From the NCBI GenBank assembly GCA_944389835.1, contig CALXNU010000016.1, positions 1 through 35,825 on the forward strand: a stretch of DNA of 35,825 bases, in the 5' to 3' direction. This DNA is from an uncultured Succinivibrionaceae bacterium (lineage in GTDB: Bacteria > Pseudomonadota > Gammaproteobacteria > Enterobacterales > Succinivibrionaceae). The position numbers and the translations under genes were made by a program. Every line of letters starts with the position of its first letter. The first letter of the stretch is position 1. This document shows positions 1-35,825 of this stretch, piece after piece. The notes below the pieces were generated by a model that had not been told where the DNA came from, did not search any database, and saw only the letters and a program-made list of their open reading frames with translations.

Positions 1-76
1 GGAGCCGTGTGCGATAAAGTCGCACGCACGGTTCTGAGGGAGGGGCAAGGCGCTAAACGCCATCCCCTACCCCTAT
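1..76 (+). mobile_element. Group II intron, 3' end (domains V and VI)
   Basis: Positions 2-35 fold as a group II intron domain V. The 5' arm starts GAGCCGTGTGCGA with the catalytic AGC triad at 3-5, and the 3' arm is TCGCAC, a two-base GC bulge at 26-27, then ACGGTTC. Domain VI follows: a G-rich arm (about 38-45), an inner GGCG/CGCC hairpin with a CTAAA loop (54-57 with 59-65 region), and CCCCTACCCCTAT. The A at 69 is unpaired and lies 8 nt from an intron end at about 76, as expected for the branch-point adenosine. The intron runs on the plus strand, so its body and any reverse transcriptase lie left of the window. It is inserted about 17 bp beyond the stop codon of gpmI and antisense to that gene. 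The exact 3' splice point is inferred. Confidence 0.88.
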
Positions 77-33351: not shown

Positions 33352-34632
33352 TTAAGAAATTATTTCTTCAATAAAATCAAGAGTCTTTTGTACAGCTCCT
33401 TTGCCTTGCTGTTGTACATCTAAAGCTTGCATTCCCGCATTTAAAATAAGATCAGGATCATTTAAAAACATCTTTATTAAAGTATAAAGGCGCATATTGT
33501 CACCTGCGAGGAATGCTCCTTGAACTTCAATTAGTTTTTCATATTGCTCAGCAAAATTATAGTAAAAAGGACCTGTAAGAATGGGGAGTGAAAAATAAGC
33601 AGACTCAAGCGGATTGTGTCCGCCGACATCTACGAAGCTGCCACCCATAAAGACAAAATCACAAAGGCCTAAGTAAAATTCGATTTCGCCAAAGGTATCT
33701 CCAATTAAGACACTGCCTTGCAGGTCATCAAGATTTTTATGACAAAAAGAGCGTCTTGAATAGTTCTCTTTTATCTCATCTAAGAATTTGCACGCCCTTT
33801 GGGTACCGCTTTGATGTCTTGGAACTAGCACTAAGCGCAAATTAGGAAATTCTTTTTTTACAGTAAAGAAGGTCTCAATAATTTCCTCTTCTTCACCATC
33901 GTGAGTGGAAATTGCTCCCATCACAGGATAGAGATTTAAGTGTTCTTTCAACTTTCTTGCAAGCTTAAATTTTTCCTCATCAGGACTTAAATCATATTTT
34001 AAAGAGTTAGCAACTTTAATTTTGTAAGGCTCAACACCAATTCTTATAAAGCGATCTTTATCTTCATCAGTTTGCGCAATCACAAAAGTTAAATTATCGG
34101 AGATTAAATCGCGAACTAAATTTAAATGCTTTTCATATTTAAGACAGGTTTTCTCGGGCATCCTCGCATTAAAGATGGTGACTTTTACTCGCTCTTTTCG
34201 AGCTTTATCTAAAAGATTAGGCCAAAGTTCAGTTTCCATAATAAAAAGATGCGTAGGCTTTATCGCTTTAAAAAAACGTCTTAAAGCACAAGGACTGTCA
34301 AGTGGACAGAAAAGGTGGGTGATACCTATAATTTTCCGAGCCTCATTAGCGCCAGTGGTGGTGGTTGTGGTGACCACGACTTTGAAATTAGGATGTCTTT
34401 GGACAAAGCCTTCAATTACTGGGCGGGCGGCAATGACTTCACCGACACTTACGGTATGAAACCAGATAGTGCGATGAAAGCTTACTTTTTGATAGCCTAA
34501 AAGCTCCCATTTGCGCTTTCCATATGGCGGATCACGTCTTTTTTTGTGTATAAGATATGCCATCCCTAAAGGCGCAATCAGGGCAGTTAGGGTTTTATAA
34601 CAACAAAGTACGCAAGCTGATGTAAATCTCAT
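33352..34632 (-). CDS. waaA: Kdo transferase WaaA (KdtA)
   Basis: An inner-membrane-bound GT30 enzyme that transfers Kdo from CMP-Kdo to lipid IVA. One N-terminal membrane segment is followed by WFHTVSVGEVIAARPVI, in which the Glu is the catalytic base. IMETELWPNLL, ANSLKYDL, STHDGEEEEII, VPRHQ and GGSFVDVGGHNPLESA are further family marks. I chose ATG 34630-34632 (426 residues); a GTG four codons earlier is also possible, and neither has a strong ribosome site. KdkA in the same window suggests the single-Kdo type. It follows waaF by about 40 bp and is likely cotranscribed with it. Confidence 0.95.
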   Translation of the reverse strand: MRFTSACVLCCYKTLTALIAPLGMAYLIHKKRRDPPYGKRKWELLGYQKVSFHRTIWFHTVSVGEVIAARPVIEGFVQRHPNFKVVVTTTTTTGANEARKIIGITHLFCPLDSPCALRRFFKAIKPTHLFIMETELWPNLLDKARKERVKVTIFNARMPEKTCLKYEKHLNLVRDLISDNLTFVIAQTDEDKDRFIRIGVEPYKIKVANSLKYDLSPDEEKFKLARKLKEHLNLYPVMGAISTHDGEEEEIIETFFTVKKEFPNLRLVLVPRHQSGTQRACKFLDEIKENYSRRSFCHKNLDDLQGSVLIGDTFGEIEFYLGLCDFVFMGGSFVDVGGHNPLESAYFSLPILTGPFYYNFAEQYEKLIEVQGAFLAGDNMRLYTLIKMFLNDPDLILNAGMQALDVQQQGKGAVQKTLDFIEEIIS

Positions 34633-34671
34633 AACAAAAGGCACTTAACAGAAAAATATAGTGCCTTAAGT

Positions 34672-35691
34672 TTAAATTAGTTTATTGATTTTTTCTATGA
34701 CCATTTCAGGAGTGATACCTTTTAGACAAGCATAGGTACCATATTTACAGGTTCTTTCAAAACAAGGATGGCAAGGCTCATTTGATTCAAGACAAATGGC
34801 TTTACTTGAAAGAGGTGGAGTGTAATTAGTGGAGGTGGAGCCAAAAATACACACTTGAGGAACAGAGGCTGCAGCTACAGTATGCATCATACCTGAGTCA
34901 TTGCATACTGCCATCTTACATACTCCAACTAAATCTAAAGCTTCAGTAAGATTAGTAAGCCCTGCAATATCATAAAAATATTTGCGGGTATCTGCACTTA
35001 GATAGCTTTTAATTTTCTCTACAGTCTCTTTATCTTTTTTAGTGCCAGAGGCTAGAATGGCTCCTTTCTTTTCTTGAACCCAAAATTCACAAATTTGGGC
35101 AAAATATTGAGGTGGCCATAATTTAGAAGGACCATAGTTTGCTCCACAACCTAGAGCTAAAAGCTCTCTTTCAAGATTAAGTTTTAAACGCTCAAGAAGT
35201 TTATTTTCAGGATATTTAAGCTCTAAACTTGGATAATCAATAGGCGGCAGCTCTGATGAGTCTTTACACTCTAAATGTGCTAATGCCACATAGCGCTCCA
35301 CCATTAAAGGGAAAGCTTTTTTATCTTTGCGCATCTTATTTAAAAGAAGATAGCGACTTTCACCTTTAAAGCCAATGCGTTCTGGAATTCCTGCAAAATA
35401 GGCAGGTAGTGCTGATTTAAAAGAGTTTGGTAAGACAAACACTCTATCGAAATTATAACGTTTAAGTCTTATGCCATCAGCCCATCTTGCGGTGAGATTA
35501 AACTCCCCATGGGCAAAAGGATTTACTATCCTATCATCTACCTCTTTCATGCGTGCAAGAATAGGCATCATGTACTCTGGTGCATATACAGTAAGAGTGG
35601 AGCTTGGATCTTGTTTTTTTAGATCTTTAAAGAGGCTTTGAGCCATGATTAAATCACCAAGCCATGAAGGTGCAATGATAAGGGTTTTCAC
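34672..35691 (-). CDS. waaF: Heptosyltransferase II (WaaF)
   Basis: A GT9 enzyme that adds the second heptose of the inner core in the cytosol. The N-terminus LIIAPSWLGDLIMAQSLFKDL, the stretch RVFVLPNSFKSALPAYFAGIPERIGFKGE (about residues 83-111), LGCGANYGPSKLWP and CNDSGMMHTVAAASVPQVCIFGST match WaaF closely. The C-terminus has four cysteines (CHPCFERTCKYGTYAC), seen in several WaaF proteins. The 339-residue length is normal. The start is GTG 35689-35691 with AGGA about 11 bases upstream. An IS200/IS605-type element ends only about 62 bp upstream in the same direction, so the native promoter may be displaced. Confidence 0.95.
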   Translation of the reverse strand: MKTLIIAPSWLGDLIMAQSLFKDLKKQDPSSTLTVYAPEYMMPILARMKEVDDRIVNPFAHGEFNLTARWADGIRLKRYNFDRVFVLPNSFKSALPAYFAGIPERIGFKGESRYLLLNKMRKDKKAFPLMVERYVALAHLECKDSSELPPIDYPSLELKYPENKLLERLKLNLERELLALGCGANYGPSKLWPPQYFAQICEFWVQEKKGAILASGTKKDKETVEKIKSYLSADTRKYFYDIAGLTNLTEALDLVGVCKMAVCNDSGMMHTVAAASVPQVCIFGSTSTNYTPPLSSKAICLESNEPCHPCFERTCKYGTYACLKGITPEMVIEKINKLI

Positions 35692-35752
35692 TACAAATAA
35701 ATCCTAAGGTAAATTGCGTATCTCAAAACTTACTATGATCTTACCTGAATTT

Positions 35753-35825
35753 GTGAATCACCCATAACCTAAAGGTTAAGGGCTTCTTCCTGCTTCAAAG
35801 ACTTCCTAACGGTTATCTCCACAGG
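35753..35825 (-). mobile_element. IS200/IS605-family element, right end
   Basis: Read on the minus strand from the window edge, this is the end of a tnpB frame, then a hairpin (TAACCT/AGGTTA inside CCC...GGG, about 35761-35782) and GTGATTCAC. Hairpin-bearing ends closing in TTCAC or a similar pentamer are typical of the right end of IS200/IS605 elements, where the omega (reRNA) scaffold also lies. The boundary at 35753 is inferred. The body of the element lies right of the window. Confidence 0.75.
35769..35825 (-). CDS. tnpB: TnpB C-terminus, partial (RNA-guided nuclease of IS605 family)
   Basis: Only the last 18 codons and the stop lie in the window: PVEITVRKSLKQEEALNL then TAG. The pattern PVEI...S-x-KQE(E/A) just before the stop is characteristic of many IS200/IS605 TnpB proteins. 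The catalytic RuvC and zinc-finger parts are outside the window, so I cannot say whether the gene is intact. The frame is open through the window edge. Confidence 0.72.
   Translation of the reverse strand, partial: PVEITVRKSLKQEEALNL

What the first reader, a model, noticed from the sequence alone, without database searches (positions are those of the whole stretch)
35753..35825. End of an IS200/IS605 element with tnpB just upstream of waaF
The last 19 codons of a TnpB-like frame and a right-end hairpin lie about 62 bp from the waaF start, in the same direction. Two things follow from known IS605 biology: the omega RNA guide would be read from the flank beyond 35753 (minus strand, starting AAATTCAGGTAAG), and transcription from the element could run into waaF-waaA, which make essential lipopolysaccharide core.
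Basis: partly seen in the sequence, partly recalled or inferred. Interest (0 to 1): 0.6.

Follow-up and report, generated by a model that had tools for sequence, protein, structure and literature searches.

The report
IS605-type jumping gene's right end
The end of this contig is one of at least 25 practically identical copies of an ordinary IS200/IS605-type jumping gene, which here landed 61 bases in front of a lipopolysaccharide gene (waaF); it is a clean example of a well-known kind of element, not a new system.

Summary
Window 35753-35825 (minus strand) is the 73-bp right end (RE) of a multicopy IS200/IS605-type element: 18 codons and stop of a TnpB tail, a hairpin, and the terminus TTCAC. 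The same 73 bp occur at 25 contig ends of this genome, each with different DNA after TTCAC. I recovered the left end (LE) independently: 26 copies, every one preceded by TTGAA. Four LE/RE pairs rejoin broken reading frames exactly as ...TTGAA|flank, so insertion is 3' of TTGAA without target duplication, as for ISDra2 (TTGAT). One LE copy reads into ATG ACA AAA TGG TTA TCA CAC, which resembles the tnpA start of a family member. Related Succinivibrionaceae carry the same end design with a Y1 tnpA (broken in the copies read) and an open 419-aa TnpB with RuvC D/E/D.

The guide prediction is sound by inference: flank from 35752 down, AAATTCAGGTAAGATC..., TAM TTGAA. Not shown: a whole tnpB in this copy (interior absent from the assembly), any guide RNA, or read-through into waaF-waaA. 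No terminator-like or minus-strand promoter-like site was found between element and waaF, so read-through is possible but untested. New member of a known kind; low interest.

The parts
35753..35825 (-). Right end (RE) of a multicopy IS200/IS605-type element; the terminus TTCAC ends at 35753
   Evidence: The same 73 bp at 25 contig ends with different flanks; relatives in two other genera of the family end at the same base
35769..35825 (-). Last 18 codons and stop of a TnpB-like frame, PVEITVRKSLKQEEALNL*
   Evidence: the same frame in relatives reads KPVESSKSSLKQEEAHQL* (read from the DNA)
35787..35825 (-). Probable omega-RNA scaffold core CCTGTGGAG...TGAAGCAGGAA, overlapping the tnpB tail
   Evidence: Sub-threshold Rfam RAGATH-18 match (24.4 bits, gathering score 44.9; 36.4 and 34.6 bits in relatives); the motif sits at or just past the 3' end of a tnpB frame in at least 24 of 74 viral-contig loci
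35761..35782 (-). Right-end hairpin CCCTTAACC-TTTA-GGTTATGGG
   Evidence: two compensated pairs and one T-T mismatch relative to relatives; the LE carries a hairpin of the same design
35733..35752 (-). Flanking DNA that would supply the guide (AAATTCAGGTAAGATCATAG); predicted TAM of the empty site TTGAA
   Evidence: Boundary from 25 copies; TTGAA at 26 left ends and in four rejoined frames; guide use inferred from ISDra2 TnpB (PMC8612924)
35692..35752 (-). 61-bp interval between the element and waaF
   Evidence: No terminator-like and no minus-strand promoter-like site found
34672..35691 (-). waaF (heptosyltransferase II), co-directional, downstream of the element
   Evidence: TIGR02195, E 3.1e-106, above cut-off
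33352..34644 (-). waaA (Kdo transferase), downstream of waaF
   Evidence: PF04413, E 6.3e-52; best NCBIfam match NF004388 is below its own cut-off

Best explanation
This is the right end of one of at least 25 recent copies of an IS200/IS605-type insertion sequence (LE - tnpA - tnpB - RE, ISDra2-like layout) in a bacterium of the family Succinivibrionaceae. Shown: both ends, hairpins, insertion 3' of TTGAA with no target duplication, the start of a tnpA-like frame next to one LE copy, and the end of a tnpB-like frame in the RE. Inferred: TnpA moves it as a single-stranded circle; TnpB, guided by RNA from the RE plus about 16-20 nt of flank, cuts empty TTGAA sites and so keeps the copies in place. 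The copy in front of waaF is best read as an ordinary insertion into the upstream region; any effect on waaF-waaA is open.
For: 25 REs with different flanks; 26 LEs all preceded by TTGAA, against a background of about 0.0023 TTGAA per base in the window; four LE/RE pairs rejoin open frames through TTGAA; the C121 LE copy continues into ATGACAAAATGGTTATCACAC, which by reading matches the tnpA start of the G004:C24 relative; relatives with the same RE design carry a 419-aa TnpB (NF040570 243 bits, above its cut-off; NF038281 313.6 bits, below its cut-off; PF07282 and PF01385 above theirs), alignable to ISDra2 TnpB with RuvC D/E/D kept, downstream of a broken Y1-type tnpA frame.
Against: The interior of the element was not found in this assembly: the OrfB and TNB domain searches hit only other elements. 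The closest relatives share only about 79-84% of the last 45-53 bp of the RE. Short internally deleted copies exist in sister genera.
Confidence: 0.92

Rival explanations
1. The copies here are short non-autonomous derivatives (LE and RE with a deleted middle), so the TnpB tail is a remnant and this copy makes no nuclease.
For: In sister genera, copies of 237-238, 340 and 765 bp between TTGAA and TTCAC exist and keep both ends.
Against: All RE and LE copies break the assembly about 73-77 bp into the repeat (about 90 bp for one variant LE), while the 237-238-bp copies of G002 are assembled through; this favours long copies here (inference about the assembler, not proven). Near-identical ends mean recent movement, so some copy supplied an active tnpA.
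Confidence: 0.25
2. The insertion changes expression of waaF-waaA: tnpB/guide transcripts run on into waaF, or the insertion cuts waaF off from its own promoter.
For: Same direction, 61-bp gap, no terminator-like and no sigma-70-like site on that strand in the gap; in relatives the hldD-waaF intergenic region is about 113-370 bp, so upstream promoter DNA may now lie beyond the element.
Against: No RNA data; consensus scans over 61 bp say little; the left-hand flank of this copy was not identified.
Confidence: 0.2
3. The join at 35753 is an assembly artefact.
For: It lies near a contig end in a fragmented genome of 142 contigs.
Against: The same boundary base is seen at 25 contig ends, and four LE/RE pairs restore open frames.
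Confidence: 0.03

Closest known systems
ISDra2 (Deinococcus radiodurans, IS200/IS605 family; PMC8612924)
   Same: Hairpin ends, pentanucleotide target 5' of LE (TTGAT there, TTGAA here), no target duplication, tnpA then tnpB in one direction, guide taken from the RE flank (the last inferred here)
   Different: Different target pentanucleotide and end sequences; nuclease and transposition not tested here; tnpB of this copy not recovered
IS605-type elements of sister Succinivibrionaceae (G004:C47 = CALXOV010000047.1; also G002, G024, G034, G060, G062)
   Same: TTGAA before LE where LE was read, hairpin with TTTA loop, scaffold GTGGAG...GAAGCAGGA, terminus TTCAC where RE was read
   Different: About 79-84% identity over the last 45-53 bp of RE; many copies short or broken; TnpB tail SSLKQEEAHQL instead of KSLKQEEALNL
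RAGATH-18 RNA of IS607 TnpB systems (RF03064; PMC11061315)
   Same: Sequence core CCUGUGGAG...UGAAGCAGGAA and outer stem
   Different: Below Rfam's gathering score; loop much shorter; here it overlaps the tnpB tail of an IS605-type element with a TTGAA target, whereas the IS607 TnpBs of that paper use AGGAG or GAGGG

Membership tests
IS200/IS605 insertion sequences | Subterminal hairpins at LE and RE instead of terminal inverted repeats | tested here: met
   LE and RE both fold into CCC...TTTA...GGG hairpins
IS200/IS605 insertion sequences | Insertion 3' of a fixed short target without duplication | tested here: met
   TTGAA at 26/26 LEs; four rejoined frames
IS200/IS605 insertion sequences | Y1 (HUH) transposase tnpA | tested here: inconclusive
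   Only the first seven codons (MTKWLSH) next to one LE copy; a Y1-type frame, broken, in the relatives G004:C47 and C24 (by reading)
TnpB RNA-guided nucleases | RuvC D/E/D and zinc-finger domain | tested here: inconclusive
   Met in the relative G004:C47; the window holds only the tail
TnpB RNA-guided nucleases | Guide RNA ending with flank DNA next to the RE | not testable with these tools
   Needs small-RNA data; scaffold-like motif present
IS607 elements | Serine-recombinase TnpA | not tested
   Nothing pointed to one; the TTGAA target and hairpin ends fit IS605 instead

The most novel reading that the evidence does not exclude
The RE copy makes guide-RNA biogenesis and LPS-core gene expression one transcript: the tnpB/guide transcript extends into waaF-waaA, so element activity tunes the outer membrane.
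Probability: 0.07. Interest if true: 0.4.

Novelty: new member of a known kind. Interest (0 to 1): 0.13.

Why it matters
It gives precise ends, target (TTGAA) and 25 distinct natural candidate guides for an IS605-type element that expanded recently in one bacterium. That could serve as a test set for TnpB guide use, but it changes no picture of the family.

Tried and rejected
Exact-pattern scans for the RE in genome contigs and for RE and LE in viral contigs found no copy (records of this genome may be left out there), and the plasmid collection gave none. The same-genus genome G001 has waaF but its contig begins 233 bp upstream, so the empty site could not be compared. hldD, divergent from waaF in eight of the ten relatives read, is not on any LE contig stretch examined, and the gene upstream of waaF in G001 was not found in this genome, so the left flank of this copy stays unassigned. 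IS607 membership was considered because of the RAGATH-18-like core and set aside on target and ends. A first tnpB test on the viral-contig loci used too strict a pattern and was replaced. One family scan was run by mistake on a TnpA-like fragment I had typed, not on sequence from these genomes; it is not evidence.

Full report
Observation. The last 73 bases of the window, read on the minus strand, are CCTGTGGAG...GGTTATGGGTGATTCAC. They translate to PVEITVRKSLKQEEALNL* and hold a hairpin; the stop codon overlaps its loop. A search of the window's own genome (2.41 Mb, 142 contigs) found the sequence at 25 places, every one at the end or start of a contig, at 99-100% identity. After TTCAC the flanks differ. 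The boundary at 35753 is therefore real and exact.

The other end. Contig starts of the genome were fetched and clustered. One cluster, 8 of 45 starts, read in the element's direction as TTGAA-ATAAATGTCCGCGCAATCCCATTATCTTTAGATGATGGGTCAAGCGGACTC. A genome search found 26 copies, all preceded by TTGAA; seven copies have T for A in TCAAGCGG. Joining the left flank through TTGAA to the flank of a right end restores open reading frames in four cases: a tnpB of another element (C45/C93), an aldo/keto-reductase-like gene (C36/C3), an acetyltransferase-like gene (C62/C52) and a further gene (C7/C96) (the last three gene names by reading, not by a family search, and the last pair is the least certain). 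This pairs LE with RE, fixes the target as TTGAA and shows no target duplication.

What the element encodes. One LE copy (C121) differs by a base and is assembled about 20 bases further...ACAC ATGACAAAATGGTTATCACAC, M-T-K-W-L-S-H. The element in G004:C24 reads V-T-K-W-F-S-H-N-R-H-K-Y at the corresponding place (sequence). G004 is an uncultured Succinivibrionaceae genome (CALXOV01). G004:C47 has a Y1-type tnpA frame (partial) followed by a 419-aa TnpB with OrfB_IS605 and TNB domains, alignable to ISDra2 TnpB over residues 7-390 with the RuvC D, E and D in place. Its own tail is shifted by one base relative to most other relatives, which read KPVESSKSSLKQEEAHQL* in the window's frame. The interior of the window's own element was not found: domain searches hit only other elements, as would be expected if collapsed repeat contigs under 3 kb are not held. 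So for this element tnpA and tnpB are shown by their first 7 and last 18 codons only.

Right-end RNA. The RE contains CCTGTGGAG...TGAAGCAGGAA, which Rfam's RAGATH-18 model matches below its threshold here (24.4 of 44.9 bits) and better in relatives (36.4 and 34.6). A pattern scan shows the motif to be common in viral contigs; in at least 24 of 74 distinct loci it sits at or just past the end of a tnpB frame, and in 29 a TTCAC-like end follows within 60 nt (the tnpB test was a short regular expression and misses many). This is the expected place of a TnpB guide-RNA scaffold: PMC10278001 describes the RE as the 3' end of the scaffold, followed by a guide from outside the element, made from the tnpB mRNA; PMC8612924 shows that the TAM equals the insertion target. 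Applied here, the guide would start at 35752 with AAATTCAGGTAAGATC and the TAM would be TTGAA. The RE terminus TTCAC differs from the TAM, so an occupied site should be spared. This is inference.

Length of the copies. Sister genera hold short copies of 237-238, 340 and 765 bp that keep both ends, so a short, tnpB-less copy here cannot be excluded. The 237-238-bp copies of G002 are assembled through, whereas all copies in this genome break the assembly 73-77 bp in (one variant LE about 90 bp); this favours long copies but is an inference about the assembler.

waaF. The 61 bp between the element and the waaF GTG show no terminator-like and no minus-strand promoter-like site. In eight relatives hldD lies divergent from waaF with about 113-370 bp between them; here the left flank could not be identified. 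Read-through is possible and untested.

Verdict. An ordinary, recently amplified IS200/IS605-type element, cleanly delimited. New member of a known kind; interest low.

Noticed in passing
window 2-76 (+): 3' end of a group II intron (RF00029, 50.8 bits); the same end begins 7 of 45 contig starts, so the window is bounded by two different multicopy elements.
   Followed up: partly
L131/L018 (C45/C93) and L032 (C49): Copies of the element sit inside other IS200/IS605 genes: in a tnpB (frame restored through TTGAA) and next to a Y1 tnpA fragment.
   Followed up: partly
L189, L190, L195 (G002), L116 and L115 (G062): Short derivatives of 237-238, 340 and 765 bp between TTGAA and TTCAC that keep both ends, MITE-like.
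   Followed up: partly
L115:625-660 (-), L117:530-565 (-), window 35787-35825 (-): RAGATH-18-like core in IS605-type right ends, although PMC11061315 reports RAGATH-18 only with IS607 TnpB. Sub-threshold; suggests a scaffold core shared by both families.
   Followed up: partly
L084, L102, L112 (contig starts): A third repeat end...AAGGAGTTAAAGGGGACACAT, at 3 of 45 contig starts: probably yet another insertion sequence.
   Followed up: no
LE copies L141, L143-L148: Seven of 26 left ends share a T for A change, i.e. at least two subfamilies of the element.
   Followed up: no
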